Shown here: piece after piece, positions 4,891 through 49,631 of the stretch | Layout of the letters: each line of letters begins with the position of its first letter | Position numbering within the stretch: position 1 is the stretch's first letter | Notes under the pieces: model-generated | Seen by the model: only the letters and a program-made list of their open reading frames with translations | The model's database searches: none | Told to the model about the DNA's origin: nothing | Assembly: GCF_000731095.1 (NCBI RefSeq) | Contig: NZ_JMTZ01000021.1 | Span: 124,001-188,000 of the forward strand | Direction of reading: 5' to 3' | Length of the DNA: 64,000 bases | Source of the DNA: Lysobacter antibioticus | GTDB taxonomy: Bacteria > Pseudomonadota > Gammaproteobacteria > Xanthomonadales > Xanthomonadaceae | Translations under genes and position numbers: made by a program

Positions 4891-6265
4891 CCGCCAGCGG
4901 CACCGCGACGCCGCTGCTGAAGGTCGACCACGCCGGCGTGCGCAGCACGGTGCCGAAGCCGTCGATGCGCAGCACGCCGGTGGCGCCGGAAACGAACGCG
5001 TCCGAGCGGGTGGCCAGGCGTTCGAGGTAGGCCGACAGCAACCAGGCGTCGTAACCGAAGGCGAACAGGCGCGCGCCTGGACCGCGCGCGGTCGGCAGGG
5101 TCGCGGCGGCGCCGACGGCCGGCGGCAAGCCGCGCACGCCGCCGCTGGTCCAGGACTCGGACGGGAAGGCGATGCCGTCGAGGACGCGGTCCTGCTCCGG
5201 CTTGCCGGTGCCCGACAGCAGTTGCGAGGTAGCCACCCGCGGCTTGTCGGCCAAGCCGACCAGGGCGAGCTTCGGAATCAGGGTGCGTGCGGCGCTGCCC
5301 TTGGTCGCCAGGAACACGGCATCGACGCCGCCTTCCTTGGCCACGAACGGCGCCAGGTCGGCGGTGCCTTCGCCGACGGTGTCGGTGACCTGGGCGCCGC
5401 GTGCGGCCAGGCGTTCCTTGAGTGCGGCGATCGCGCGGCGCTGGCCTTCGTCGCCGCCGCCGATGGCGAGCACGCGCACGACCTTGCGCTCGAGCAGGTA
5501 GTCGGCCGCGGCGATGCCTTCGTCCTCGGGCGTCAGCGAGAAGCTGACGTTGCCGCTGGGCGGAGCGACGTTGCCGCGATTGAGCGCGAGCACCGGCACC
5601 GGCAGGACGGTCTTGCTGAACAGGGCGCTGACCTCGTCGCGGCCGAGCGGGCCGATCACGAAGTCGTTGCCCGCGGCCGCGGCCTTGTCGTAGGCGGCCA
5701 GAGTGCCGCCGGCGGTGCCGGAGGTGTCGTAGAAGACGATTTCGGGGCGACGACGGCTTTCGCCGTAATAGCCGGCGAGCAGACCGTCGCGCACCGGCGC
5801 CGAAGCGGTCGCCAGTGCACCGGTCAGCGGCAGCAACACCGCGAGCTTGACCGGCGGACGGTAGCCGTCGCTTTCGGCCGGCGGACGCTGGCCGGCGCCG
5901 CTGAAGCTCCAGTTCGAGGTCTGGTCGAACGGGCGCGGCAAGGGCAGGCCGCGCTGCATCAGCTGGCGGCCGAGGTAGTTGTAGAGCGGATCGCCGACCG
6001 GCACGGCATCGGCTTCGCGCGCCAGGGCGGCGTTGTCGAGTTGCGATAGCAGGCGTTCGATCTGTTGTTCGTTCTCGGTCCGCGCCGCGCCGCTGAGGCT
6101 GGCGTTATTGCGGGCGAGGTGGGCCGCCTGGGCGATCAGCGGATTGGCCGCGTTGATCGCCGCGACCGGACGGGTTTCGACCGTGGCGCAGCCGCCGAGC
6201 AGGGCGGTTGCGGCCAGAAGGCTGAACATCCATGTCATCGCGGGCCGGTTTTTCTTTTGATTCAT
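4874..6265 (-). CDS. lpoA: LpoA/LppC-type penicillin-binding protein activator lipoprotein, short form
   Basis: Outer-membrane lipoprotein expected to reach through the periplasm and stimulate a class A peptidoglycan synthase, as LpoA does for PBP1A in E. coli. Seen: a signal peptide with lipobox LLGGC giving Cys26, a helical region of roughly 120 residues, and then a periplasmic-binding-like domain starting at about [14 protein letters not shown] with the motif [14 protein letters not shown]. At 463 residues it is much shorter than the roughly 680-residue E. coli protein; the missing part is mainly the N-terminal TPR-like domain. The ATG chosen is the one directly before the signal peptide; the longer frame upstream would bury it. 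Confidence 0.85.
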
Positions 6266-7610: not shown

Positions 7611-7970
<360 letters not shown>

Positions 7971-7972
7971 GC

Positions 7973-35292: not shown

Positions 35293-37020
35293 TTAGTCCT
35301 TGGTTACGCGGTTGATTTCGGCCAGGCCGGTGACGCCGTTCATCACCTTGATCAGTGCGGAGCGGCGCAAGTCGTTCACGCCGGACTTGATGGCGGCGGC
35401 CGCGATCTGCATCGCGTTGCCGCCCTCCAGCACGATGGCCTGGATTTCGTCGGTCATGGGCATGACCTGGTAGATGCCGGTACGTCCCTTGTAGCCTTCG
35501 GTGCAGTCCGGGCATCCCGCCGGCTCGTACAGCTTGAATCCGGACGCGATCTCTTCCGCACTGAAGCCTTCGGCGAGCAGGGCGTGTTCCGGCAGATGCA
35601 CCTCGCGCTTGCAGTCATGCAGACGGCGGGCGAGGCGCTGGGCGATGACCAGGGTCACCGACGAGGTGATGTTATAGGGCGCGACGCCCATGTTCATGAG
35701 GCGGGCGATGGTCTGCGGTGCGTCGTTGGTGTGCAGGGTCGACAGCACCATGTGGCCGGTCTGGGCGGCCTTGATCGCGATCTCGGCGGTCTCCAGGTCG
35801 CGGATTTCGCCCACCATGATCACGTCCGGATCCTGGCGCAGGAAGCTGCGCAGCGCGGCGGCGAAGGTCATGCCGCGTTTGACGTTCATCTGCACCTGGT
35901 TGATGCCGGGCACGCGGATTTCGACCGGGTCTTCGACCGTGGAGATGTTGCGTTGCTCGTCGTTGAGAATGTTCAGCGCGGTGTACAACGAGACTGTCTT
36001 GCCCGAGCCGGTCGGGCCGGTCACGAGCACCATGCCGTAGGGCTTGACCACGGCATTGATGAACAATTCTTTCTGGTAATCCTCGTAGCCGAGCTTCTCG
36101 ATGCCGAGGCGGGCGGCGCTGCCGTCGAGGATACGCAGCACGATCTTCTCGCCGAACAGCGTCGGCAAGGTGCTCATACGGAAGTCGATCTGCTTGGTCT
36201 TGGACAGATTGAGCTTGATGCGTCCATCTTGCGGCACGCGCTTCTCGGCGATGTCGAGCTGCGCCATGACCTTCAGGCGCGCGGCGATGCGCGAGTGCAG
36301 CTTGTTCGGGACCTTGGCGACCTGCTTGAGCAGGCCGTCGATGCGCAGGCGCACCCGGTAGTCGGTCTCGTAGGGCTCGAAGTGGATGTCCGAAGCGCCG
36401 CGGCGGATCGCATCGACCAGGACCTTGTTGATGAACTTGACGACCGGGGTGTCGTCGCCCTTGGCGTCGATGCCGGTGTCGCTGGTCGTGCTGAGATCGT
36501 CGTCCTTGCCGATCTCCAGAGTGTCGAGCCCATCGCTGTCGCCGACCGCGTTGGCGAGGGCGTCGGAGTTCTCGAGCCAACGGTCCAGGGTCCGTCGGAT
36601 CAGCTCCTCATCGACCAGGATCGCTTCAACCGCGGCATTGGTCTGGAACTTGATCTCGTCCAGGGCGGCGGTATTGGTCGGGTCGGCCAGGCCGATGAAC
36701 AATTTGTTGCCGCGCTTGAACAGCGGCAGTGCGCTGTGTTTGCGAATCAGCTCCTCACTGATCGCCCGCACTGCCGATTGACTCGGGTCCAGGGTGCTGG
36801 GATCGAACAGCGGCACGCCGAACTCGATCGAGTTGGCGGCGGCCAATTGAGCGGAGGTGGCAAGCCGATGCTCGGCCAGGTAGGTGGCCAGCGGTTTGCG
36901 CTCGGCGCTGGCCGCGGCCATGGCTTCGCGTGCCTTGACCTCGTCCAAAGCTCCATCCAAGACCAAACGCCGGGCAATGCCGGTGATACCCACCAAGTTG
37001 GCGGTCGCGACGCTGGACAT
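35293..37020 (-). CDS. pilB: Type IV pilus extension ATPase PilB
   Basis: Hexameric cytosolic ATPase powering pilus extension. The 575-residue protein has an N-terminal MshEN-type domain (the likely place for cyclic-di-GMP binding in this family), the linker with ASDIHFEPYE, Walker A GPTGSGKT at 335-342, the Asp box, Walker B (QDPDVIMVGEIRD), the His box (LSTLHTNDAP), and a tetracysteine-like zinc site (CKREVHLP, CPDC). The ATG used has a GAGGG ribosome site; the frame extends much further upstream but without family similarity. It heads pilBCD-coaE. Confidence 0.97.
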   Translation of the reverse strand: MSSVATANLVGITGIARRLVLDGALDEVKAREAMAAASAERKPLATYLAEHRLATSAQLAAANSIEFGVPLFDPSTLDPSQSAVRAISEELIRKHSALPLFKRGNKLFIGLADPTNTAALDEIKFQTNAAVEAILVDEELIRRTLDRWLENSDALANAVGDSDGLDTLEIGKDDDLSTTSDTGIDAKGDDTPVVKFINKVLVDAIRRGASDIHFEPYETDYRVRLRIDGLLKQVAKVPNKLHSRIAARLKVMAQLDIAEKRVPQDGRIKLNLSKTKQIDFRMSTLPTLFGEKIVLRILDGSAARLGIEKLGYEDYQKELFINAVVKPYGMVLVTGPTGSGKTVSLYTALNILNDEQRNISTVEDPVEIRVPGINQVQMNVKRGMTFAAALRSFLRQDPDVIMVGEIRDLETAEIAIKAAQTGHMVLSTLHTNDAPQTIARLMNMGVAPYNITSSVTLVIAQRLARRLHDCKREVHLPEHALLAEGFSAEEIASGFKLYEPAGCPDCTEGYKGRTGIYQVMPMTDEIQAIVLEGGNAMQIAAAAIKSGVNDLRRSALIKVMNGVTGLAEINRVTKD

Positions 37021-37155: not shown

Positions 37156-38016
37156 ATGCACGTATCTGTAGTTTTGCCGGCCAAAAACGAGTCGGAAGGG
37201 CTTCGCCGCACCCTGCCAGCCCTGCGCCAGGCCCTGCCCGGCGCCGAAATCATCGTAGTCGACGATGGTTCGACCGACGACACCGCCGCGGTCGCGACGG
37301 GCCTGGGTGCCCAAGTATTGTCTTCGCCCTATTCGATGGGCAACGGCGCCGCGATCAAGCGTGGCGCCAGAGCCGCCAGCGGCGAGGTCATCGTGTTCAT
37401 GGATGCCGACGGCCAGCACGACCCGGCCCATATCCGGCTACTGCTGGAGCGGCTCGAGGCGGGCTATGACATGGCCGTGGGCGCGCGCAATTCCGGCGGT
37501 CAGGCCAGCGTCGGCCGCGGCGCCGCGAATGCCCTGTACAACCGCCTGGCCAGTTGGATGACCGGGCACAAGATCCAGGACCTGACCTCGGGTTTCCGGG
37601 CCGTGCGCGCGGCCAAGTTCCGCGAATTCCTGCATCTGCTGCCTAACGGTTTCAGCTACCCGACCACGAGCACGATGGCATTTTTCCGCAGCGCCTATCC
37701 GGTCACCTACGTGCCGATCGAGGTTGCGCGCCGGGTCGGCACCCAAAGTCATATCCGCCCCTTGCGCGACGGCGTCCGCTTCTTGCTCATCATTTTCAAG
37801 ATCGCCACGCTGTATTCGCCGCTTAAGTTGTTCGCGCCCGCCGCGGTGAGCTTTGCCATGCTCGGGCTGGGGCATTACGCCTGGACCTTCGCTACCCAGG
37901 GGAGATTTACCAACATGAGCGCTTTGATGCTCAGTGCGTCGGTGATCGTCTTCCTGATCGGTCTGGTGTCGGAGCAGATTACCTCGCTTACCTATACCCG
38001 CGCCGACAGGCCATGA
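37156..38016 (+). CDS. Family 2 glycosyltransferase, DPM1-like, with C-terminal membrane helices
   Basis: Predicted to move a sugar from a nucleotide donor to a polyprenyl phosphate at the inner membrane. The 286-residue protein has a GT-A fold start (HVSVVLPAKNESEGL), VVDDGSTDDT, the metal-binding DADGQHDP, and ends with two hydrophobic segments at about 220-240 and 250-272. It diverges from pilB across 135 bases and has a GGAGAG ribosome site. It is the first gene of the plus-strand part of the block between pilB and the pilins; a polyprenyl-linked sugar would suit surface or pilin glycan transfer. Confidence 0.85.
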   Translation: MHVSVVLPAKNESEGLRRTLPALRQALPGAEIIVVDDGSTDDTAAVATGLGAQVLSSPYSMGNGAAIKRGARAASGEVIVFMDADGQHDPAHIRLLLERLEAGYDMAVGARNSGGQASVGRGAANALYNRLASWMTGHKIQDLTSGFRAVRAAKFREFLHLLPNGFSYPTTSTMAFFRSAYPVTYVPIEVARRVGTQSHIRPLRDGVRFLLIIFKIATLYSPLKLFAPAAVSFAMLGLGHYAWTFATQGRFTNMSALMLSASVIVFLIGLVSEQITSLTYTRADRP

Positions 38017-38041
38017 GCCGTCGGCGAGCTGTCAGCGAATC

Positions 38042-39166
38042 ATGAGCGGCGCCGATGTCGCCCTGTTGATCACCACTTCCTATGCGCGCGCAGGCGACGG
38101 AAGCGAGGCGGCCGGTGCCTTCGTATCCGATCTTGCGCAAGAGCTCGCCGGCCTGATGCCGGTCAGAGTCGTAGCGCCCGGGCGCTCGGAAGAGGTCGGC
38201 ATGCATGGGGCCGTCGAGGTATGGTCGTTCGAAGCTCCCGATAAGCCCCTGTCGTTGTTGTCGCCGGGCGATCCGCGTAATTGGCTGGCAATCGTGCGGA
38301 CCTTGCGCTCGCTGCGGCGAACGGTGTTGGCCGCGAACGGCGACGCGCGTATTCGGCATGCGCTCGCATTCTGGGTGTTGCCCTCGGGATGGGCCGCGCG
38401 TGCGTTAAAGCGCAAGAGCGGGATCCCGTACAGTGTGTGGGCCTTAGGCAGCGACATCTGGTCGCTCGGTCGCATCCCCCTGATTCGAGGGTTCTTGCGA
38501 GGCGTATCGCGTGATGCAGCCCAGGCTTACGCCGACGGTATGCGCTTGGGGCAGGATGCCGAACGGGTTACGGGGCGCCGGTTCGACTTTCTTCCTAGTA
38601 CGCGGAAATTGACTGCGGTGCGGTTGCGTCCGGTGTCGAGGGCCGCGCCGTATCGTTTGCTGTTTCTCGGCCGCTGGCATCCGAACAAGGGGGTCGACCT
38701 CTTGATCGCCGCCTTGGCGCTCCTCGGCGACGAAGATTGGGCGCGCATCGACGAAGTTCACCTCGCCGGTGGTGGGCCGCTGAAGGACGAGGTCACTGAG
38801 GGCGTCGCGGCGCTGCGGGCCGCCGGCCGGCCGGTCCGTCTCAGCGGATATCTCGATCGCGAACAAGCTTCGCGAGCGTTCGGCGAGGCGGATCGCCTGC
38901 TTTTGCCCTCGCGCATCGAAAGCATTCCGGTGGTGTTCTCCGATGCGATGAAGTTCGCGCTTCCCGTGGTTTCGATGCCGGTCGGCGATTTGCCGAGTCT
39001 GATCAGGGAAGGAACCGGATGGCTGGCACTAAGCGTCGATGCCGATGCCTTTGCCGATGCGATTCGCGCCTGCCTTCATTCCGGTCACGACGATGGCGCC
39101 CTGGGCAGCATGAACGAACGCTTCTCGCTAGAGAGGATCGCCCAGCGGATCGCCAGCCATGATTGA
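38042..39166 (+). CDS. Family 4 (GT-B) glycosyltransferase
   Basis: Retaining-type glycosyltransferase of 374 residues. Seen: an N-terminal Rossmann half starting ALLITTSYARAGDGSE, then the GT4 C-terminal half with LLFLGRWHPNKGVDLLI, VHLAGGGPLKD, the LLLPSRIESIPVVFSDAMKF E-x7-E nucleotide-sugar motif, and VSMPVGDLPSLI. Donor and acceptor are unknown. It follows the GT2 by 25 bases and overlaps the next gene by 8. Confidence 0.85.
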   Translation: MSGADVALLITTSYARAGDGSEAAGAFVSDLAQELAGLMPVRVVAPGRSEEVGMHGAVEVWSFEAPDKPLSLLSPGDPRNWLAIVRTLRSLRRTVLAANGDARIRHALAFWVLPSGWAARALKRKSGIPYSVWALGSDIWSLGRIPLIRGFLRGVSRDAAQAYADGMRLGQDAERVTGRRFDFLPSTRKLTAVRLRPVSRAAPYRLLFLGRWHPNKGVDLLIAALALLGDEDWARIDEVHLAGGGPLKDEVTEGVAALRAAGRPVRLSGYLDREQASRAFGEADRLLLPSRIESIPVVFSDAMKFALPVVSMPVGDLPSLIREGTGWLALSVDADAFADAIRACLHSGHDDGALGSMNERFSLERIAQRIASHD

Positions 39167-40019
39167 CCTGGACTCGGATCATTGGATGGATGCGCTTCGC
39201 GACGGGCTCGGTGCGCAGATACGCCGGCTGCCCGGACAGCAAGGCGGCTCGGTCGCGTGTTTTCGCGCCGGCCCTTTCCGGGTCGCCTATCCGGACTTCC
39301 TGATCGGCGCACAGGACATCGGCGCAGAGGCCTTGGCCGCAAGAGTCGATGCCGCCCGCGGTTTGCGCGCGGACTTGATACGGGTCCAGGCGGAGCGTGT
39401 GTGCGAAGATGCGCGGGTTTTCGCCCGACATGATCTCGGCAGCATCGTCATCCCGGCTCTGGGCGAATGGAACGAGCGCAGTTGGGAGAAAGCGCGTCGG
39501 GCAGCGAATCGTCTGGTCAGGTCGGAGCTCGAGATCCGGGCAGGGCGCCGGGGCGACGGCGTCCATCTGCATCGTTTGTATCTTTCGACGCTGCATCGCC
39601 ATAGCGGCGCGGCGCGCTACACCGAAGCCTACTTCGAGTCCATTGCGCCGCATGCCGCGCTGGTGGCGGTGTTGGACGGGACGATATCCGGCTTCGTCTG
39701 CACCGGATTTCGCGGCAAGCGAGCGTGCTACATGCATGGCGCGCATCTGCCGGAAGCCCGCGGGCACTATCCCTCCGATCAATTGTTCCTGACGATGTTG
39801 CGCTGCGCGCGCGATGCCGGGATGAGCAGTTTCGATTTCCTGCCATCGCCGGCCGGCCAAGGTAGTCTTGGGGCCTACAAGCGCGCATGGGGCGGCAGCG
39901 ACGCCCCGCTGTTGGTCAGCGATCTCGCGCTGAATCCCCTGCGTGCGCGGGCTTTCGCCGCGGCATTGCGCTTGTCGAACAAGCTGGGCTCAATCCGCCG
40001 GGGTTCGACGGGCGGCTAG
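39159..40019 (+). CDS. GNAT-type acyltransferase (BioF2/FemAB-like)
   Basis: Predicted N- or O-acyltransferase of 286 residues. The second half resembles the BioF2-like acetyltransferase domain: VHLHRLYLSTLHRHSG, a core strand VAVLDGTISGFVCTGF, and the C-terminal FDFLPSPAGQGSLGAYKRAW, where the Gly/Ser loop and the Lys-Arg match the FemAB/GNAT family end. In this setting it could acylate an amino sugar made by the DegT aminotransferase encoded nearby. The end overlaps the converging FAD gene by 30 bases. Confidence 0.65.
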   Translation: MIDLDSDHWMDALRDGLGAQIRRLPGQQGGSVACFRAGPFRVAYPDFLIGAQDIGAEALAARVDAARGLRADLIRVQAERVCEDARVFARHDLGSIVIPALGEWNERSWEKARRAANRLVRSELEIRAGRRGDGVHLHRLYLSTLHRHSGAARYTEAYFESIAPHAALVAVLDGTISGFVCTGFRGKRACYMHGAHLPEARGHYPSDQLFLTMLRCARDAGMSSFDFLPSPAGQGSLGAYKRAWGGSDAPLLVSDLALNPLRARAFAAALRLSNKLGSIRRGSTGG

Positions 40020-41054
40020 CACCTTCGCCAGCCGCGCCGCGTCGAAGCGGATTCCCCGTAGATAGCGGCTGCGATGGTCGTAGAGATTGTCGAAGCCCAG
40101 CAGATACACGCCGGGCAGGCTCTGCACTTCGAATCGGCTGTTGAGTGGCACGTCGAATCCGTCGCGAGTGACGGGGCGGGGCAATAGATCGAGTAGCGCG
40201 CGATACCCGGTCGCCATGATCACCGCAGCGGCGTGCGCCCGTCGGCCATCGTCGAGGACGATTTCGCCGTTCTCGATTCGCTTGAGCGTGGGCCACACCT
40301 CGACCTTTCCGCTTTCGACCAACCCCCGATTGCGTCCTCCGTCCATAACCGGGTAGGAGGGGCGTTTGATTCCGGGCCTCAATCGAGCCTGCAGCTCTTC
40401 CCAGAAGAAATAGACGGTTTCGCGAATGCTGGCTATGAAGCCGTGACGTCGGAATTCGATCGGCGAGCGCAAGCTCAACGCGCAAGGAATGCCGCGATCA
40501 TGCAGCTCCAGCATCAGTTGCCCCGCGGTGACCCGCCTGCCGACCACCACCACCGGCCGGTCGCCCGAACGCAATTGCTCCAGTTGGGCGTAGTCGCTGA
40601 TCTCCGAGGCGTGGAGAATGCGAACGGAACCGTCTTCGATCAGGGGCGGGGACGGCCACGACGGCGAAAAGAAATAGCCGGTTGCCATCGCGACCGACGA
40701 ATAACCCGGCGAGATGCCGTGTGCCGTGCGGACGTTCCAGTTGCCGTTGCCGTCCTCTTCGATCCCGAGGACTTCGTTGTTCTCATGGATTGTTCCGCGT
40801 AGCCGCTTTGCGATGCGCAACAGGTGATCCAGGTATTCGCCCGCATGCGGCTTGCGAAACGGATTCCCACGCAGCACGTCGCCGAACGACAGCACGTTCG
40901 TCCACCACGGACTGAGGACGCGCAGGTCGGGCGGCGCGGCCCGCCAGGTCGCCCCCAACTCGCGAGCCTCGAACAATTCGTAGTTCAGGCCCAGCCGGTC
41001 GAGCGCTGTCGCAAGCGCGATGCCGGCCGGTCCGCCGCCTATGATCGCGATCAT
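39990..41054 (-). CDS. FAD-dependent oxidoreductase, FMO-like
   Basis: A 354-residue flavoprotein of the pyridine nucleotide-disulfide/flavin monooxygenase superfamily. The N-terminus carries an intact FAD motif IIGGGPAGIALATAL and a Glu at the end of strand 2 (ELFEARELG), and ATGY motifs occur twice (AMATGYFFS, IMATGYRAL). The second nucleotide-binding site, normally GxGxSG/A, reads VVVVGRRVTAGQLML, so NADPH binding may be altered. The substrate is unknown. Start chosen at the ATG that overlaps the methyltransferase stop (ATGA); a longer frame upstream has no similarity. Confidence 0.78.
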   Translation of the reverse strand: MIAIIGGGPAGIALATALDRLGLNYELFEARELGATWRAAPPDLRVLSPWWTNVLSFGDVLRGNPFRKPHAGEYLDHLLRIAKRLRGTIHENNEVLGIEEDGNGNWNVRTAHGISPGYSSVAMATGYFFSPSWPSPPLIEDGSVRILHASEISDYAQLEQLRSGDRPVVVVGRRVTAGQLMLELHDRGIPCALSLRSPIEFRRHGFIASIRETVYFFWEELQARLRPGIKRPSYPVMDGGRNRGLVESGKVEVWPTLKRIENGEIVLDDGRRAHAAAVIMATGYRALLDLLPRPVTRDGFDVPLNSRFEVQSLPGVYLLGFDNLYDHRSRYLRGIRFDAARLAKVLAARRTPAD

Positions 41055-41800
41055 GCCCGAGCCTCGAACAGCACCTCTGCGTAATCCCACGGCCAGACGC
41101 CGGTGACCGCCGCGATGCCGGCCTCTGCAGCGCGCAGCATCGGCCATAGCGCGCGAGGGACCAGACCCATGGCGATCAGCGGAGTGCTCGGAAAACGCCC
41201 GTGCCGAAGCACGGAGGATCGCTCCGCGCTAAACCCGGCCGAGCGCAGCAGTGCCTGCCACTCCTCTCGGGTCCGTTGTACTTTCAGCCCCTTCTCGGTG
41301 ACGCATCGGCGCGTACGCGCCTGCTCTATCATGATCAGCGATCCGCCCGGCTTCATCGCGTTTCGAACGGATACGAGCAAGGCCCTGGCCTGATCGTCGT
41401 CGACGAGGTAGCTCAGGACCACATAGACCATGACCCCATCGACCGTGCCCGGGGCCAGCGGCAGTTGTTTGCCGTCGATGGCTACGAAAAGGCAGTTCTG
41501 ATCGCCACATCGTGCCCGGGCATGCCGCAACAGGTCCGCGGCGATATCGACACCGAGCATGGTGTAGCCGGCATCGAGCAAGGGCCGGGTGGAACTGCCG
41601 GTTCCGCAGCCGAGGTCGAGCAGACAACCCGATTCGATGCCGCGGCGTTTCAATGCGGCTAGAAATGCGCTGTTGCGGATGGCCGCCAGATATTTGTTCT
41701 TGTGGCCGCGGCTGTCCAGGGGATCGATGATCGCCGCATCGGGATCGATTGAGGCCAACGAGTTCCAGTAGGCGCGCTGCTCTCGATCAGCCTGGCTCAC
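41051..41800 (-). CDS. Class I SAM-dependent methyltransferase
   Basis: A 249-residue methyltransferase with motif I CLLDLGCGTGSSTRPL near residue 59, an acidic residue closing strand 2 (MLGVDIA), the post-motif DGKQLPLAPGTVDGVMVYVV and a typical GGSLIMIEQ strand. It probably methylates a small molecule or sugar; nothing points to rRNA or DNA. The GTG start overlaps the upstream membrane gene by 14 bases; no good ATG lies near. The ATGA overlap downstream couples it to the FAD enzyme. Confidence 0.8.
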   Translation of the reverse strand: MSQADREQRAYWNSLASIDPDAAIIDPLDSRGHKNKYLAAIRNSAFLAALKRRGIESGCLLDLGCGTGSSTRPLLDAGYTMLGVDIAADLLRHARARCGDQNCLFVAIDGKQLPLAPGTVDGVMVYVVLSYLVDDDQARALLVSVRNAMKPGGSLIMIEQARTRRCVTEKGLKVQRTREEWQALLRSAGFSAERSSVLRHGRFPSTPLIAMGLVPRALWPMLRAAEAGIAAVTGVWPWDYAEVLFEARA

Positions 41801-42770
41801 GTCGGGCTCCGAGCATCCACGCGCTGGACAGTGCGGCGGCCGCGATTTCCGCACCGAGAAACACCAGCCTGGCCAGGGTCGCGGTGACGGCCAGGGTCGC
41901 CGCATCCGCCCCGGTCAATCCGGGCGCCGCGACGAAAATCGCCTCGCGCACGGCGATGCCGGCGGGAACAACGAAAGCGGCCAAGGCGAGGATCGAGGCG
42001 CCGCCGTACCAGGTTCCGAGCAGCAGCCGCTCGGGCCAGTCCGCCAGGCCATGCAGCATGATCGCAAACGACGCGAAATAGAAAATCCATTCCGAACAGA
42101 GCAGCGCGGTGCCTTTCCAGGGCATCGGCGGCAACGGCCGGCTGCTCGTCAGCGGCGCCAGGCGAGGCAGAAAGCGGGACAGCTGTTTCAGCATCCAGGA
42201 CTCGATGGCCGGATGACGATGCATCCATTCCACCGAAGCGATCACCGGAACGAGCAGCAACAGCCAGGCATGGGAGTAGCGAAAAGCGAGCATCAGCGCG
42301 ACGACCAGTCCCGCGGCGAGCGCATTGGTCGTGGCCATTTGCCATAAATTGGCGATCACCACCTCGCTCGCGCGATGGGTGCCCGACATGCGCTGGCTTT
42401 GGTAGACAATACCCCAGACTTTGCCGGGCAGGTAGCGCACGATCTGGGCCTGCAGATAGATCGGCAACCCGGTCCGGCGGGAACTGCGCTCCCCGGCGAC
42501 GCGGTCGAGCAGGCCGAGGTGGTAGCAACCCTTGATCGCATACATCGGGACGGCGACCAGCACGGCCAGCAGCACCTGCTGCCAACCGATCGCGGCCATG
42601 GACTTGCCGACCACCGAGACTTCCGGTTCGAGCGCGTGAGCCAGGAAGGCCAGCGCTCCCAGCACGAGCAGCCAGGTCAAGGCCTTGCGGACCGGGCCCG
42701 AGGGGCGACCCGGGCGCGTCGTCGTCGCTGCGCCTACGGGCTCGTCGGTGCTAAGGGGCGGGGTGGTCAT
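41787..42770 (-). CDS. LPG_synthase_TM / UPF0104-type membrane protein (flippase-like)
   Basis: A 327-residue polytopic protein with about seven to eight hydrophobic segments starting near residue 30, resembling the flippase-like membrane domain found in MprF and AglD. Seen: the family pattern LQAQIVRYLPGKVWGIVYQS and the late VPAGIAVREAIFVAAPG. It lacks the soluble lysyl-transferase domain of MprF. Next to glycosyltransferases, such proteins are thought to move lipid-linked sugars or to assist polyprenyl-sugar enzymes, but activity is unproven. Confidence 0.75.
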   Translation of the reverse strand: MTTPPLSTDEPVGAATTTRPGRPSGPVRKALTWLLVLGALAFLAHALEPEVSVVGKSMAAIGWQQVLLAVLVAVPMYAIKGCYHLGLLDRVAGERSSRRTGLPIYLQAQIVRYLPGKVWGIVYQSQRMSGTHRASEVVIANLWQMATTNALAAGLVVALMLAFRYSHAWLLLLVPVIASVEWMHRHPAIESWMLKQLSRFLPRLAPLTSSRPLPPMPWKGTALLCSEWIFYFASFAIMLHGLADWPERLLLGTWYGGASILALAAFVVPAGIAVREAIFVAAPGLTGADAATLAVTATLARLVFLGAEIAAAALSSAWMLGARREPG

Positions 42771-42795
42771 AAAGCAGGCAATCGCGACTCGTTCG

Positions 42796-43968
42796 TCAGC
42801 TCGTCAGCGCGCGGGTCGCCGCATCGACCACCCGCTCCAGGTCCGAGTCGCTGAGCTTGGGCGAAAGCGGCAGGCTCACGGTCTGCTGTCCGATCCTTCT
42901 GGCATTCGGCCACTGGTCTGGGTCCCAACCGAAACGCTCGCGATAGTAAGGGTGCTCGGCAACGGACAGATAATGCACCCCGGTACCAACGCCGTGGGCA
43001 TTCATGCGATTCAGGAAGGTGTCGCGTTCGATCCCTGCGCGGGCAGGATCGATCATCACCGTGTAGAGGTGGAACGCATGCCGGGTATGGCTTTCCGGAT
43101 CGGCAGGCAAGCCCAGCGGCAGCTCCGCAAGCGCGTGGCCGTAGCCCGCCCACAACTCCTGTCTCCGCTGCCAGCTCTGTTCCACCCGTGCGAGTTGGTG
43201 CAGTCCGATCGAGGCTTGCAGATCCATCATGTTGTATTTGAAGCCGCACTCGACGACTTGATAGTGTTTGTAACCCTTGTCGCTGAAACGGTGCCAGGCG
43301 TCCTGGCTCATTCCGTGCAGGGCCAGCATTCGCGCGCGGGCGATCAATTCGGCATTGCGGCCGACGATGAGGCCGCCTTCGCCGGTTACGACGTTCTTGG
43401 TGACGTAGAAGCTGAAGCAGCCGAAGTCGCCGAACGTACCTGTCCTCTGGCCGCGGTATTCGCTTTCGATGGAATGCGCGCAGTCTTCGATCACCATCAG
43501 GTTGTGTTTGTTCGCAATCGCCATGATGCGATCCATGTTGCAAGGGCGCCCGGCGAAATGCACCGGCAGAATGGCTCGCGTGCGCGGCGTGATCGCCGCT
43601 TCGATCGCATCCGGATCGATGTTCTGGGTGACCGGATCGACATCGGCGAGGACCGGCGCCAGGCCGGCATGGATGATCGAGTTGACGGTCGCACAGAAAG
43701 TCAGCGGTGTGGTGATGACTTCACTGCCCGGCTCCAGGCCCGCTGCGACCATGCTGACGTGCATCGCGGCGGTGCAGGAGTTCACGCCTGCGACCAGCTG
43801 CGGCTCGATGCCCTTATAGCGGGCGAAATCGGACTCGAAACGAGCGACCCTCGGACCGGTTCCCAGCCAACCCGAACGTAGGCAGGCCTCCACCTCCGCA
43901 ATCTCGGGTTCCTGGATGTCCGGAGCGGCAAAAACCAGAAAGGGGGGCTTGGTTTCGGTCGAATTCAT
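42796..43968 (-). CDS. DegT/DnrJ/EryC1/StrS sugar aminotransferase
   Basis: PLP enzyme of 390 residues that transaminates a keto sugar nucleotide. Seen: the GVNSCTAAMHVSM segment, DVDPVTQNIDPD, IEDCAHSIESEY with the PLP-ring Asp, the Schiff-base Lys191 in FSFYVTKNVVTGEGG, and a C-terminal HYLSVAEHPYYRERFG. Closest in feel to ArnB/PglE-type enzymes of amino-sugar synthesis. It leads the minus-strand run aminotransferase, membrane protein, methyltransferase, FAD enzyme (25-base gap, then overlaps). No sugar dehydratase or epimerase is present here, so the substrate must be made elsewhere. Confidence 0.9.
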   Translation of the reverse strand: MNSTETKPPFLVFAAPDIQEPEIAEVEACLRSGWLGTGPRVARFESDFARYKGIEPQLVAGVNSCTAAMHVSMVAAGLEPGSEVITTPLTFCATVNSIIHAGLAPVLADVDPVTQNIDPDAIEAAITPRTRAILPVHFAGRPCNMDRIMAIANKHNLMVIEDCAHSIESEYRGQRTGTFGDFGCFSFYVTKNVVTGEGGLIVGRNAELIARARMLALHGMSQDAWHRFSDKGYKHYQVVECGFKYNMMDLQASIGLHQLARVEQSWQRRQELWAGYGHALAELPLGLPADPESHTRHAFHLYTVMIDPARAGIERDTFLNRMNAHGVGTGVHYLSVAEHPYYRERFGWDPDQWPNARRIGQQTVSLPLSPKLSDSDLERVVDAATRALTS

Positions 43969-44211
43969 GGCGGATCGGTGTCCTGAGTGGGTGACGCTCT
44001 ATTGGGGCTTGTTCGAGAGCAGGCGCCGGCAGCATCTGGCCGGCCGGGCTGAGCTCTCGTCTCGCGGATCGAGATGCTCCTTCTCGCGTTCGCGACCTGT
44101 TACAGCCGTCCGGCCTGCATCAGACGCAGACTCCGTCGACGGCGGCGCAAGAAGCATGGCGGGGCATCGGTCTGACCGCCGCCGCGATTTCGTCGTTAGC
44201 CCGTTTCGACT

Positions 44212-46104
44212 TCATTGCTGACCCAGCAGGGCTTTCGTCTTCGCGAGTTCCGCGCGTCCTTGCGTGTCGTAGGGGCCCATGCGTTGATCCAATACCGCCA
44301 GCAACCGCTCGGCTTCCGGGCGCATCTTTCGGACCGCATAGATATTCGCGAGCAGGGCGCCGGTCGGCAGGTCGCCGCTCGCCTTCCAGGCGAGTTCCGC
44401 CTGCCGCTGGGCTTCTGCCGTACGGCCGGCATGCAGGAACATTTCCGCAGCCAGGAACCGGGTCAGCCATTTGGAGCGCGAGTAGTCCGGCTGAGTCTTT
44501 GCTTTTTCGAGCATGACCGAAATGCCGTCGGCGATCGCCGAGTCGGTCAGCCTGCCGCAGCCTTGTTCCTTGACGACGCGGGCGAGCAAGCGCAGGGCCG
44601 GAACCTCGGCCATGCTGAGCTTGGGGCGAGCCTCGATCAGAGCGCGCTGCAGATCCGTGGGGGGAACATCGATGCCCCGCATGCAGTCCAGCGTCACCCA
44701 GCTGATCCTGCCAATGACCCGGTTGCGCGGGTTCTTGCTGGCGAGCAGATCGGCGAAGGCATCGTAGGAGGCTTGAGTCTCGCCTTTTCTCAGGGCGATC
44801 GTGGCGCGGACCAGTTGGGCGCGCATCGAGTCCGGATGATGCTTGAGGCCCTGTTCCAGGATCAGATCCTCGGCTTGCCAGACATGCGCGCGTCCGCCGG
44901 TCGCAAAGGCGAACGACAGGGCAAATCCAGCGGCGATGACCAGACCCAATTGGCGGGGAGTGAAGACATTCGTGGGCAGGTCTTTAGGGACCAATGAAGC
45001 CAGGCCCACGACGGCCAGGATCAGGCCGAACGCGGGGAGGTAGTTGCGATGTTCGAAGTAAAGTTCCAGGGCAAGAATGCTGGATTCAACGCCGTGGGCC
45101 ACGAGGAAGAAGAACCAGCCGGCAAATACGCTGGGCGCGCGCTTGCGCAGCGCGATGGAGCCCGCGCTGATCGCCAGCAAAGCGAGCAGAGAGAACAGAG
45201 TCGTCGGTGGGGAGAGCAAGCCGGTGGAGGGCTGGAAATCGTCGGTATACAGGCCGAGCAACGGTGTGCGGGGGACGAGTACCGTCCCGATGTAGTCCAT
45301 CAGCACTCGCGACTGCGACAGCAGCCGTTCGACCAGGGTGAAGTCTCGCTCGGCATAACCGCTCAGCAGGCGATCGGGCGTTGCGATCAACAGGCCGACG
45401 ACGGCCAGTCCCGGAAGCAACAGGAGCAGCCCGAAGAAGGCTTGGACGGCCCGATCGGGCTTGGGCCGCGAGACGAAATACGCCAGTTCGATCACCAGGC
45501 ATAGCGCAGGCGCTACGGCCGCGTTCTCCTTGCTCATCAAGCCGGCGAAGACCAGCAAGGGAAACAGTAAAAACAGGCCGAGCAAGGCTCTGCGGGTCTT
45601 GCCGTCGATCAGTTGGCGGCGGGCGGCGAGGTAAGCCCACAACGATGCCAACACGAACAGAGTGCTCAGCTGCGCCATGCGTTGCACCGAGTAGAGCACG
45701 GTGCTGACGTTGATCGGATGCAGCAGCCACAGGGCGACGACGATGCTCGCGAACAGATCGGAATTCGTGGACAGCCGCTGATCCTGGGCGAGAAGCCGTC
45801 GGATGACCTGCCAGCCGAGGAATCCGCAGGCCAGGTGGATGACGAGGTTGCCCAGCTTGTAGGCGTAGGGGCTGTGACCGCTCAGTTCGGCGCTGAGCAG
45901 AAAGCTCGCCATCGACAACGGTCGTCCAAGCATGCCGGACTGGTTGCCGAACACCACCGATTGCCAGCTCAGCTCGCCAGTCAGCCAACTCTGGACCGGA
46001 TTGAGATTCGGCAGGTCGTCGAACAGGAACGGGCCCGAAAGACCCGGCCAGTAAATCAAGCAGGTCAGAGCCATCGCAACCAACAGCACGATACGAGCGG
46101 GCAT
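44212..46104 (-). CDS. GT-C-like multi-pass membrane protein with C-terminal TPRs, candidate pilin glycan transferase
   Basis: A 630-residue protein with about ten to eleven membrane helices over the first 420 residues and a soluble helical C-terminus of about 210 residues that reads as TPR-type repeats (AEMFLHAGRTAEAQRQAELA, ANIYAVRKMRPEAERLLAVL). Early loop FDDLPNLNPVQSW carries the acidic pair seen in GT-C enzymes, and HRNYLPAFGL matches the TMTC-like family. It resembles TMTC/DUF1736-TPR proteins in layout. Lying directly downstream of two pilin genes, it is a good candidate for adding a lipid-linked sugar to pilin, but this is inference from position. Confidence 0.65.
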   Translation of the reverse strand: MPARIVLLVAMALTCLIYWPGLSGPFLFDDLPNLNPVQSWLTGELSWQSVVFGNQSGMLGRPLSMASFLLSAELSGHSPYAYKLGNLVIHLACGFLGWQVIRRLLAQDQRLSTNSDLFASIVVALWLLHPINVSTVLYSVQRMAQLSTLFVLASLWAYLAARRQLIDGKTRRALLGLFLLFPLLVFAGLMSKENAAVAPALCLVIELAYFVSRPKPDRAVQAFFGLLLLLPGLAVVGLLIATPDRLLSGYAERDFTLVERLLSQSRVLMDYIGTVLVPRTPLLGLYTDDFQPSTGLLSPPTTLFSLLALLAISAGSIALRKRAPSVFAGWFFFLVAHGVESSILALELYFEHRNYLPAFGLILAVVGLASLVPKDLPTNVFTPRQLGLVIAAGFALSFAFATGGRAHVWQAEDLILEQGLKHHPDSMRAQLVRATIALRKGETQASYDAFADLLASKNPRNRVIGRISWVTLDCMRGIDVPPTDLQRALIEARPKLSMAEVPALRLLARVVKEQGCGRLTDSAIADGISVMLEKAKTQPDYSRSKWLTRFLAAEMFLHAGRTAEAQRQAELAWKASGDLPTGALLANIYAVRKMRPEAERLLAVLDQRMGPYDTQGRAELAKTKALLGQQ

Positions 46105-46225: not shown

Positions 46226-46639
46226 TCAACGACACTCGGCGGGCACTCGGGTCAAGTCGGTGCCGCTGGGGACGCTGCAATCCCATTCCACGCGGCCGGC
46301 CGCCAAGGTCGGGCGCAGGGTAAAAGTTATCGGGACCCCCGAGTTCGGCGACGTCGTCGCGGTCACCACGCCGTTCGCGCCGATCGCCACGCTGGCGCAG
46401 TAGCTCGAAGCCGCGAAACTGTAGCCGGTATTGGTTGCAGTGACTTGATTCAGCGCTCCCCGGTCCTGTGCCGTCTCGGAGACGGACAGCTTGGCCGCTG
46501 CGGCGACATTGAGGCATTCTGCGTTCTTGGTCCGGCTGACGTAGTCGAGGTAACCGGGGAGTGCGATTGCGATCAGGATCCCTAGGATCGCAACGACGAT
46601 CATCAGCTCGATCAAGGTAAAGCCTTTTTGCCGCTTCAT
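46226..46639 (-). CDS. pilA: Type IV major-type pilin, second copy
   Basis: A 137-residue class a type IV prepilin: short leader MKRQKG cut before Phe, Glu at mature position 5 (FTLIEL), the hydrophobic helix ending near residue 29, and four cysteines, the last two forming the expected C-terminal disulfide loop (EWDCSV ... PAECR). It is roughly 60% identical by eye to the other pilin; the alpha-helix is almost the same, differences lie in the beta region. It has its own sigma-54 promoter and a GGGGGA ribosome site. Confidence 0.95.
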
Positions 46640-46950: not shown

Positions 46951-46983
46951 AAAAAGAAAGGGCCCCGGTAAACCGGGGCCCTC
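46951..46983 (-). terminator. Rho-independent terminator after the first pilin gene
   Basis: Perfect 9-bp stem GGGCCCCGG / CCGGGGCCC with a TTTA loop, followed on the minus strand by TTTCTTTTT. It separates the two pilin genes and so supports independent transcription. Confidence 0.9.
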
Positions 46984-47011: not shown

Positions 47012-47431
47012 TTAGCGGCACTCGGCCGGCAGCTGCGACTTCTTGGCACCGCCGGTTTCGTTGCAATCCCACTCAACGCGGCCGGCGTCCAGGGTCGGAA
47101 CCAGCTCGAACTTGGCGAGCGTGGTGGCGCCGGTGGCCTGGGTGGTCGCGGTGATGGTGCCGCCCGAAGCGATGGTCACGCTGGCGCAGTAGCTCGAAGC
47201 AACGAAGCTGTAGCCGGTGATGGCCTGGCTCGTGATCGCAGCGAGGTTGCCACGGTCCTGCGCGGTTTCCGACACGGCCAGCTTGGCGGCGGCGGCAACG
47301 TTGATGCACTCGGCGTTCTTGGTGCGGACGGTGTAGTCCTGGTACGCCGGCAGAGCGATGGCGATCAGGATGCCGAGGATGGCGATGACGATCATCAGTT
47401 CGATGAGGGTAAAGCCTTGCTGCTTCTTCAT
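47012..47431 (-). CDS. pilA: Type IV major-type pilin, first copy
   Basis: A 139-residue prepilin with leader MKKQQG, mature start [16 protein letters not shown] (Glu5 present), and four cysteines with the C-terminal pair in [10 protein letters not shown] and PAECR. The central region is rich in Thr/Ser/Ala/Gly ([19 protein letters not shown]), giving many possible O-glycosylation points. Strong ribosome site AGGGGA, a clear sigma-54 promoter upstream and a strong terminator downstream suggest that this is the main, highly expressed pilin. Confidence 0.96.
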
Positions 47432-47530: not shown

Positions 47531-47546
47531 CGCACATCCCATGCCA
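47531..47546 (-). promoter_or_regulatory. Sigma-54 promoter of the upstream pilin gene
   Basis: The minus strand reads TGGCATG-GGAT-GTGC, with GG-N10-GC spacing exact. It would start about 88 bases before the pilin ATG. PilR, encoded just upstream, is a sigma-54-dependent activator. Confidence 0.85.
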
Positions 47547-47622
47547 ACCTCCGTAGTTATGAACCGGGGGATCGAAAGTGATAGTCAGGTCACGTAAAGC
47601 GAGTTCGAGGCGGCGGTTGGGG

Positions 47623-48125: not shown

Positions 48126-49532
48126 TCAGTCGATCCCGAGTTTCTTGAGCTTGTAGCGCAGCGCGCGGAAGGTGATGCCGAGGGCGGCTGCGGTGCGGGT
48201 CTTGTTGTAGCGGTTTTCCTGCAGGGCCTGCTGGATCGCGGCGCGCTCGATCTCTTCTATATAAGAGGGCAGGGCGCTGGTCGCGGTGTCGCGCGGGTTG
48301 AGGGTGCGCGGGTCGACGGCGCCGGCCGCTTGCTGCGGCGCTGCGCCTGCGTTCTGCAGTTCGCTCAGAGGGGCCTGGGTGGCCAGGCGCGGCAGGCGCA
48401 GGTCGCTGGCGTTGAGGACTTCGCCTTCGGCCAGGGCGAGCGCGCGCTCAAGAATGTTCTCGAGCTCGCGCACGTTGCCAGGGAAGCCGTAGGCGCGCAG
48501 CGCTTCCTGGGCGTCCTCGCCGAGGCGCGGCACCGGACGGCCCTGGCTACCGGCGAGCCGGTGCAGGATCTTCGCGGCCAGGCCGGGCAGGTCGTCGAGG
48601 CGTTCGCGCAACGGCGGCACGCGCAGCTCGATCACGTTGATGCGGTAGTACAAGTCTTGGCGGAAGCGGCCTTCGGCGACGAGCGCGGCCAGGTCCTTAT
48701 GGGTCGCCGACAGGATGCGCACGTCGACGACGAGCTCGGCCTGGGCGCCGACCGGACGAATGGATTTTTCCTGGATCGCGCGCAGCAGCTTGACCTGCAT
48801 CGGCAGCGGCAGCTCGGCGACTTCGTCCAGGAACAAGGTGCCGCCGTCGGCGGCCTGGAACAGGCCGGGTTTGTCGACGTGGGCGCCGGTGAAGCTGCCC
48901 TTCTTGTGGCCGAAGAATTCGCTCTCCATCAGCTCGGCGGGAATCGCGCCGCAGTTGACCGGAACGAACGGGCCGTCGGCGCGGCCGCCTTCGGAATGGA
49001 TGGTGCGCGCGACCAGTTCCTTGCCGACGCCGGACTCGCCGGCGATATACACCGGGGCCTGGCTGCGGGCGACCTTGCCGATGGTCTGGCGCAGTTTGAT
49101 CATCGCCGGCGATTCGCCGTACAGGCGCGAACCGACCGCTTCGCTGGCGCTGCGGCGGGTGTCGTTGAGTTCGAGGGCGTGGCGCACGAGATCGCGCAAC
49201 ACCGCCAGGTCGACCGGCTTTGCGACGAAATCGAAGGCGCCGGCCTTGAGCGCGTCGACCGCGGCTTCGACGTTGCCGAAGGCGGTGATCATCGCGACCG
49301 GGGTGTTGGGGTATTTCTGGCTGATCTCGGCGATCAGGTCCATGCCCGAGCCGTCGGGCAGGCGCATGTCGGTCAGGCACAGGTCGTAACGATTGCGCAG
49401 CAGTTGGCTGCGCGCCTCGCCGAGGCCCGATGCGGTATCGCAACGCAGGCCCATGCGGCCCAAGGTCATGACGAGGAGCTCGCGAATATCGCGCTCGTCA
49501 TCGACCACTAATGCACTACGAGTTTCTGCCAT
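48126..49532 (-). CDS. pilR: Sigma-54-dependent response regulator PilR
   Basis: NtrC-family activator of pilin genes. The 468-residue protein has a receiver domain (acidic DD at 11-12, phospho-acceptor Asp55 in LCLTDMRLPDGSG), an AAA+ domain with Walker A GESGVGKE, Walker B TLFLDEVAELP, and a sigma-54 contact loop reading GSFTGA rather than GAFTGA, a form seen in other PilR proteins. A Fis-type helix-turn-helix ends the protein (YNKTRTAAALGITFRALRYK). Start chosen at MAETRS, just before the receiver strand. The 99-base gap to pilS suggests co-transcription. Confidence 0.96.
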   Translation of the reverse strand: MAETRSALVVDDERDIRELLVMTLGRMGLRCDTASGLGEARSQLLRNRYDLCLTDMRLPDGSGMDLIAEISQKYPNTPVAMITAFGNVEAAVDALKAGAFDFVAKPVDLAVLRDLVRHALELNDTRRSASEAVGSRLYGESPAMIKLRQTIGKVARSQAPVYIAGESGVGKELVARTIHSEGGRADGPFVPVNCGAIPAELMESEFFGHKKGSFTGAHVDKPGLFQAADGGTLFLDEVAELPLPMQVKLLRAIQEKSIRPVGAQAELVVDVRILSATHKDLAALVAEGRFRQDLYYRINVIELRVPPLRERLDDLPGLAAKILHRLAGSQGRPVPRLGEDAQEALRAYGFPGNVRELENILERALALAEGEVLNASDLRLPRLATQAPLSELQNAGAAPQQAAGAVDPRTLNPRDTATSALPSYIEEIERAAIQQALQENRYNKTRTAAALGITFRALRYKLKKLGID

Positions 49533-49631
49533 TGCGCCCTCCACCGCCCACGATAGCTTAACGAGGCCGTCGCGGCCAAGACGCACATGATCGGGAATCC
49601 CAGACCGGGAATCCGCTCACGCAAGTATGGC

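What the first reader, a model, noticed from the sequence alone, without database searches (positions are those of the whole stretch)
37156..46104. Eight-gene putative glycan block wedged between pilBCD and the pilin genes
Seen: two glycosyltransferases, a GNAT/FemAB-like acyltransferase, an FMO-like flavoprotein, a SAM methyltransferase, a flippase-like membrane protein, a DegT aminotransferase and a GT-C/TPR membrane protein, flanked on one side by pilB and on the other by two pilins. By eye the base composition is less GC-biased than the flanks. Together they could make, modify (amino, acyl, methyl, perhaps oxidised) and transfer an unusual sugar to pilin or another surface molecule. I know of no described pathway with just this set.
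Basis: partly seen in the sequence, partly recalled or inferred. Interest (0 to 1): 0.75.

Follow-up and report, generated by a model that had tools for sequence, protein, structure and literature searches.

The report
Swappable sugar cassette beside pilin genes
This is a block of sugar-making and sugar-attaching genes that most likely decorates the bacterium's hair-like pili; relatives keep the two ends of the block and swap the genes in between, so the pilus coat could change the way a blood group does.

Summary
In detail: eight intact genes of the stated kinds lie at 37156-46104 between pilB and two pilins in a Lysobacter genome. The last gene (g8) has a GT-C fold, invariant catalytic residues and a TPR tail. 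Its homologues lie within 18.1 kb of pilB in 74 of 74 scored family genomes, and just after a pilin in 18 of 20 loci examined from the class. Pilin and g8 diverge together (partial r given pilB 0.84, n=18), partly through linkage; g1 does not follow the pilin (-0.09, n=28). Close homologues of the oxygenase, acyltransferase and aminotransferase were found only beside g8 (6 of 6, 4 of 4, 11 of 11). All eight families recur beside a pilin in another bacterial family. Between fixed ends, relatives carry other sugar pathways, one D-arabinose-like, and the nearest relative differs sharply just here. I read it as an exchangeable pilin-glycosylation locus: g1 makes a lipid-linked donor, g6 flips it, g8 transfers it, g2-g5 and g7 tailor it. 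The glycan is unknown. A new variant of TfpW-type pilin cassettes.

The parts
35293..37020 (-). pilB, conserved left boundary of the locus
   Evidence: 94% nt identity with G197; a match in 189 of 197 family genomes
37156..38016 (+). g1: GT2 with two C-terminal hydrophobic helices, polyprenyl-phosphate sugar synthase type (DPMS/ArnC-like)
   Evidence: 5mlz DPMS 1.7e-15, ArnC 1.4e-13; hydropathy; orthologue of 86% or more in 13 of 20 genus genomes, own included, next to pilB in all 13
38042..39166 (+). g2: GT4 glycosyltransferase (cassette gene)
39159..40019 (+). g3: FemAB-like / Acetyltransf_6 acyltransferase (cassette gene)
   Evidence: 4 of 4 family hits at pilin loci
39990..41054 (-). g4: flavin monooxygenase-like oxidoreductase (cassette gene)
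   Evidence: 6 of 6 hits at pilin loci
41051..41800 (-). g5: SAM-dependent methyltransferase (cassette gene)
41787..42770 (-). g6: LPG_synthase_TM-type membrane protein, putative flippase for the lipid-linked sugar
   Evidence: below cut-off; L019, L033 and L088 proteins above cut-off
42796..43968 (-). g7: DegT aminotransferase of ArnB/PseC type (cassette gene)
   Evidence: 1mdo ArnB 6.1e-85; 11 of 11 family hits at E<=1e-130 at pilin loci
44212..46104 (-). g8: GT-C-fold transferase with C-terminal TPR superhelix, TMTC-like; proposed pilin glycosyltransferase
46226..46639 (-). pilin2, adjacent to g8; proposed acceptor; tail ...[12 protein letters not shown], of a kind shared by pilins next to g8 of at least 69% identity
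46726..46741 (-). sigma-54-like promoter site of pilin2 (TTGGCAC-N6-TGC)
46958..46983 (-). terminator-like hairpin (11 pairs) after pilin1
47012..47431 (-). pilin1; identity to G197 returns to flank level within this gene (from 47178)
47532..47547 (-). sigma-54-like promoter site of pilin1
48126..49586 (-). pilR, conserved right boundary
   Evidence: 98% nt identity with G197

Best explanation
An exchangeable type IV pilin glycosylation locus. Proposed steps: g1 loads a sugar onto a polyprenyl phosphate on the cytoplasmic side; g7 aminates, g3 acylates, g5 methylates and g4 oxidises the sugar or its substituents, g2 adds a further sugar; g6 flips the lipid-linked product; g8, a GT-C enzyme with a periplasmic active site, transfers it to Ser/Thr of the neighbouring pilin, which its TPR region may help recognise. 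The locus diversifies by replacement of the inner genes together with g8 and pilin sequence between conserved pilB and pilR/pilS. Shown here by sequence or model: gene families, GT-C fold, invariant residues, linkage, co-divergence with the pilin, cassette exchange. Inferred: donor, flipping, order of steps, acceptor residue, the glycan, and function (by analogy with Pseudomonas, phage evasion or surface variation).
Against: No chemical evidence. The next pilin along also tracks g8 (partial r 0.72 against 0.86, n=17), so part of the co-divergence is linkage. g8 reaches no curated cut-off in Pfam or NCBIfam and has no meaningful relative in the PDB by sequence. No dehydratase for g7's keto-sugar lies in the block; a 636-aa dehydratase-like gene (PF02719, 350 bits) exists elsewhere. 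No pilin motif in 2 of 20 class-level g8 loci (L068, L073). One weak family hit (G091, E 1.8e-4) lies far from pilB. Root690 keeps only a 67-aa g7 remnant. Cassette labels are also clustered on the pilB tree (9 changes, shuffled mean 13.2), so descent plays a part beside exchange.
Confidence: 0.78

Rival explanations
1. Two-layer glycan: g1 and g8 add one common first sugar to pilin in all species, and the inner cassette builds a variable second layer with its own lipid-linked donor, flippase and transferase, rather than g8 transferring the whole cassette product.
For: g1 and g8 are kept beside cassettes A-E. Cassette C and locus L015 carry a further large protein that may be a second GT-C (my labels C_GTC650, E_581), and C a GtrA-type gene. 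L018 and L021 carry a second g8-like gene next to cassette A. A pilR-pilin-g8-g1 core stands without any of the queried cassette genes in most of the 20 class-level loci.
Against: In the window only one GT-C candidate is present, so it would have to serve both layers. Five genus genomes with g8 lack g1 beside pilB (G013, G055, G158, G201, G202). C_GTC650 and E_581 hit no family, so their GT-C nature is a guess.
Confidence: 0.35
2. The inner genes decorate LPS, EPS or another polymer, and sit beside the pilins by accident of a recombination hot spot.
For: GT2, GT4, DegT and flippase families are common in O-antigen clusters (general knowledge); Gtr three-component systems act on O-antigen (PMC11127046, passages).
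Against: Close homologues of g3, g4 and g7 were at pilin loci in every case detected at the thresholds used, across genera and in another family; g8 co-diverges with the pilin.
Confidence: 0.07
3. g8 is a pilus assembly accessory protein (TPR chaperone) with an inactive GT-C domain, as TfpY aids assembly without glycosylating.
For: TPR tail; TfpY-like accessory proteins of Pseudomonas act in assembly (PMC11841053, passages).
Against: DD, K192 and EHRNY are invariant in 78 of 78 sequences; lipid-sugar and sugar-tailoring genes travel with it.
Confidence: 0.06

Closest known systems
Pseudomonas aeruginosa / P. paraeruginosa group IV pilin cassette (pilA-tfpW-tfpX with D-Araf genes)
   Same: Pilin next to a GT-C transferase; pilin cassettes exchanged by horizontal transfer; lipid-linked sugar donor; in three Lysobacter loci the inner cassette has DPPR-synthase- and DprE1-like genes.
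   Different: The Pseudomonas sugar genes lie in another island (RGP80; PMC12369383, passages). Here they sit between pilB and the pilins and vary in kind, and the window's set (aminotransferase, oxygenase, acyl- and methyltransferase) has no arabinose genes. g8 has a TPR tail; no TfpW sequence was available for comparison.
Gtr-type three-component systems (GtrA/GtrB/Gtr*, GT136 systems)
   Same: Polyprenyl-phosphate sugar synthase + membrane flippase + GT-C enzyme (PMC11127046, passages).
   Different: Acceptor here is most likely pilin, not O-antigen; extra tailoring enzymes.
Eukaryotic TMTC1-4 (GT105) O-mannosyltransferases
   Same: GT-C domain followed by TPRs, DD in the first loop, a KE motif, an E-x(3)-Y motif with arginine late in the domain.
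   Different: R is one place further on (EHRNY against ERxxY), DUF1736 not hit, bacterial and pilin-linked. Full-length prokaryotic relatives were noted as not well characterised (PMC7801869, passages).
TfpO, TfpM, PglS, PglL O-oligosaccharyltransferases
   Same: Periplasmic transfer from a lipid carrier; TfpO, TfpM and PglS are encoded beside their pilin-type target (PMC12645811, passages).
   Different: Those have a WaaL-like / O-antigen-ligase domain; g8 is modelled as GT-C.
Variable pilB-pilC region of Xanthomonas vesicatoria
   Same: Strains differ by genes including two glycosyltransferases beside a pilin (PMC10333488, passages).
   Different: In the passages seen it is not treated as a glycosylation system; other gene set and position.

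Membership tests
GT-C superfamily glycosyltransferase (g8) | GT-C membrane fold | tested here: met
GT-C superfamily glycosyltransferase (g8) | acidic catalytic pair in the first extracytoplasmic loop | tested here: met
   D29-D30 in 78 of 78 sequences, after the first membrane helix
TMTC (GT105) | DD, KE(T/Q)xxT and ERxxY motifs plus TPR tail | tested here: inconclusive
   DD and K192 invariant, E193 in 61 of 78 (Q in 17), EHRNY invariant but R shifted by one; helical-repeat tail in the model; DUF1736 not hit. TMTC motifs from PMC7801869 passages
TfpW-type pilin arabinosyltransferase | GT-C transferase encoded next to its pilin | tested here: met
TfpW-type pilin arabinosyltransferase | sequence homology to TfpW | not tested
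   no TfpW sequence was at hand
TfpW-type pilin arabinosyltransferase | D-Araf donor pathway in the locus | tested here: not met
   absent from the window's block; present in L010, L011 and L023; the rest of this genome was not searched for it
TfpO/TfpM/PglL O-OTase | WaaL-like / O-antigen ligase domain | tested here: not met
   no such Pfam hit for g8 at E 0.01; GT-C fold in the model
Gtr-like three-component system | polyprenyl-P sugar synthase, flippase, GT-C enzyme together | tested here: inconclusive
   g1 resembles DPMS/ArnC, g6 LPG_synthase_TM below cut-off, g8 GT-C; activities untested
Gtr-like three-component system | acts on O-antigen | not testable with these tools
   linkage points to pilin instead
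Arn pathway (ArnB) | g7 meets the ArnB equivalog cut-off | tested here: not met
   356 of 631 bits; PseC 327.5 of 423.5

The most novel reading that the evidence does not exclude
g8 founds a widespread class of pilin glycosyltransferase (bacterial TMTC-like GT-C + TPR, paired with a DPMS-like GT2; homologues in 103 of 369 sampled genomes of the class), and in this family the locus works as a 'pilin serotype' switch whose cassettes swap whole sugar pathways. The window's cassette would place on the pilus an N-acylated, methylated and oxygenated amino sugar (possibly N-oxidised) of a kind I know from no protein.
Probability: 0.3. Interest if true: 0.82.

Novelty: new variant of a known kind. Interest (0 to 1): 0.66.

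Why it matters
Type IV pili are phage receptors, and pilin glycans block pilus-specific phages in Pseudomonas (PMC11841053, passages). A locus that swaps whole sugar pathways between fixed ends, with a transferase that tracks its pilin, would explain pilus surface variation in a large bacterial family. It points to a new set of protein glycosyltransferases of use in glycoengineering, and to bacterial enzymes resembling the human TMTCs that could be studied more easily.

Tried and rejected
Low G+C as proof of foreign origin: rejected as weak, since pilB and pilC are equally low and 7% of equal-length windows are as low. O-antigen cluster: rejected on linkage. Membership of g7 in ArnB or PseC: below curated cut-offs. 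g8 relatives in the PDB by sequence: none meaningful. Sigma-70 scan: one weak site where 0.6 is expected. A first sigma-54 pattern was written one base short: no exact match, and 10 matches with one mismatch where 8.9 are expected; the corrected one found two sites, both upstream of the pilins, where 3 of 100 shuffles had two or more. The wider pattern has no shuffle control, and 7 of 18 pilins next to g8 lack it. My coding-potential ORF picks trimmed low-GC3 cassette genes, so cassette contents are taken from tblastn. The Foldseek 'pdb' search was never accepted; the VIA-align table, a second look at Foldseek's own matches, was used instead.

Not found in print: searches (open-licence PMC only) listed no description of this locus or of a pilin-linked TPR GT-C. 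Most subscription papers are outside that library.

Rows dropped before counts: I entered 74 of the 76 genomes (own excluded) for which both a g8 hit and a pilB row (listing cut off) were visible. Left out as weak hits were G184 (E 3.1e-5, about 16 kb from pilB) and G091 (E 1.8e-4, about 2.7 Mb away). The other 27 of the 103 had no visible pilB row. The 20 class-level loci were picked by hand from the higher-scoring of the 103 genomes; the other 83 were not examined, except that one more of them, G387, was fetched later for its g4 hit.
Full report
What is there. The window is G000, contig C21. I call the genus Lysobacter because three genomes of its genus set have contigs of exactly the lengths of Lysobacter sp. 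Root690 (919695), L. antibioticus HS124 (59433) and Lysobacter sp. Root76 (1020541). Between pilB and two pilin genes lie eight intact genes at 37156-46104, g1-g3 on the plus strand and g4-g8 on the minus strand, meeting tail to tail at 39990-40019. G+C is only mildly lower than elsewhere (0.641 against 0.676) and pilB and pilC are equally low, but GC3 of the block (0.74-0.82) is below that of pilB, pilC, pilR and pilS (0.86-0.91).

Linkage to pili. g8 homologues occur in 18 of 20 genus genomes, 104 of 197 family genomes (E<=0.001) and 103 of 369 class genomes (E<=1e-20). In the family I scored 74 of the 103 other genomes with a hit: 74 of 74 have the best hit on the pilB contig within 18.1 kb. 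Two visible weak hits were left out, G184 (about 16 kb from pilB) and G091 (about 2.7 Mb away), and 27 genomes had no visible pilB row. From the class I fetched 20 of the 103 hits, picked by hand from the higher-scoring rows, of 16 families by code. In 18 of 20 a pilin motif lies 468-662 bp from the g8 match, while the same scan found none in 44 kb of the window outside the locus; 18 of 20 hold a g1 homologue above 45% identity. The usual order is pilS-pilR-pilin-g8-g1.

Co-divergence. Distances between the pilin next to g8 and g8 itself correlate at r 0.87 over 18 genus loci (partial 0.84 given pilB; 0 of 2000 permutations as high) and 0.85 over 37 loci (partial 0.77, likewise). On 28 loci with g1 the GT-C part gives partial 0.80, the TPR part 0.72 and g1 -0.09. 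Against a purely functional reading, the next pilin along also tracks g8 (partial 0.72 against 0.86, n=17), so linkage explains part of it. Pilins next to g8 of at least 69% identity to the window's end in T-[ND]-L-T-x-V-P-A-E-C-R in 9 of 9 loci, and 0 of 9 other genus loci have it. The signature was written after seeing the alignment, and the loci are related (L019 and L024 have identical pilB). The threonines there are candidate acceptors; that is inference.

The sugar genes. g1 is closest among solved proteins to dolichol-phosphate mannose synthase and ArnC and has two C-terminal hydrophobic helices. g7 is ArnB/PseC-like but below both cut-offs. A 636-aa NDP-sugar dehydratase-like gene elsewhere (L083, PF02719 350 bits) could supply its substrate. 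At the thresholds used, g4 (E<=1e-40) was found in 5 of 197 family and 2 of 369 class genomes, g3 (E<=1e-25) in 4 of 197, g7 (E<=1e-130) in 11 of 197. With the window counted once, 6 of 6, 4 of 4 and 11 of 11 are within 6 kb of a g8 homologue. More distant members of these large families were not followed. The complete set recurs in the same order in G108 of another genus (L078), with g1 82% and g7 76% identical but g8 only 31%. A divergent set with extra genes is in G115 (L079). All eight families, reordered and with two g8-like genes, recur in G387 of another family with 51% G+C (L088).

Exchange. Against G197 the window is 92-96% identical in nucleotides outside, 69% over 38031-43973, and 93.8% from 47178 on, inside pilin1. 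Per gene: pilB 94, pilR 98, pilS 96, g1 78, g2-g7 67-75, g8 67 over the half that aligns. In the 20 genus loci (window included) the inner cassettes are: A (window, L008, L018 without most of g7, L021); B (L009, L019, L024: UDP-GlcNAc 2-epimerase, ArnD-like, methyltransferase, LPG_synthase_TM); C (L010, L011, L023: UbiA-type DPPR-synthase-like, DprE1-like, a short-chain dehydrogenase that I take for DprE2, GtrA and others); E (L015, L020: methyltransferase, a 286-aa gene, GT4); D (L014); no cassette beside pilB in five loci (L012, L013, L016, L017, L022); a sulfatase-family gene and neither g1 nor g8 in L025 and L026. In NCBIfam the UbiA protein is above the cut-off of PRK08238 but below those of the decaprenyl-phosphate phosphoribosyltransferase models, and DprE1 has 366 of 500 bits. 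On a pilB tree the labels need 9 changes where 6 is the least possible, and starred branches force at least 3 for A and 2 each for B, C and E. L009, L018 and L020 are close relatives with three different cassettes. The labels are still more clustered than in shuffles (mean 13.2, as low in 0 of 200), so inheritance counts too. pilB lies close to the exchanged part, so it is an imperfect guide to the species tree.

Expression. Both window pilins have a sigma-54-type site upstream. With a wider pattern 35 of 43 genus pilins do, but 7 of the 18 pilins next to g8 do not, and no g8 copy has one. A strong terminator-like hairpin follows pilin1. I infer, without expression data, that pilin2-g8-g7-g6-g5-g4 is read from the pilin2 promoter.

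Comparison. The nearest described systems are the P. aeruginosa/P. paraeruginosa pilin cassettes with TfpW and D-Araf (PMC11841053 and PMC12369383, passages), with horizontal exchange and phage resistance, and Gtr-like three-component systems (PMC11127046, passages). O-OTases of the TfpO/TfpM/PglS/PglL kind share a WaaL-like domain (PMC12645811, passages), which g8 was not found to have. X. vesicatoria strains differ by glycosyltransferase genes beside a pilin (PMC10333488, passages). The passages seen of PMC4235730 and PMC13170364 gave nothing on a pilin glycan locus. No search listed a description of this locus. I therefore file it as a new variant of pilin glycosylation, with the chemistry open.

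Noticed in passing
L025 2253-3998 (G205) and L026 (G206): Two genus members lack g1 and g8 and have a 581-aa sulfatase-family (PF00884) protein between pilB and the pilins, which could add a phospho-group to pilin instead of a sugar.
   Followed up: partly
L043 2288-5332 (G039); a 45% similar stretch in L079 between g8 and pilR: A 1014-aa protein with a spermine-synthase domain sits in the same pilB-pilin slot.
   Followed up: no
L010 2873-14016, L011, L023: A polyprenyl-phosphate-arabinose-like gene set (DPPR-synthase-like, DprE1-like, a dehydrogenase) lies between pilB and pilins in three Lysobacter genomes.
   Followed up: partly
L018 about 8220 in the flipped map (G081, Root690): Only a 67-aa remnant of the DegT gene g7 is left in this copy of cassette A; no g7 hit at E<=1e-130 in that genome.
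   Followed up: partly
L012, L013, L016, L017 between pilins and pilR: Species without g1 beside pilB carry other genes (two GT2s and a methyltransferase identified in L012) between the pilins and pilR, and 2-3 g8 copies.
   Followed up: partly
window 7613-7972: RNase P RNA, class A (324 bits), and a tRNA-Ala at 5984-6076; ordinary.
   Followed up: no
L058-L077: A pilR-pilin-g8-g1 core with none of the queried cassette genes recurs in most of the 20 loci fetched from the class, so g8 and g1 probably work without the inner genes.
   Followed up: partly
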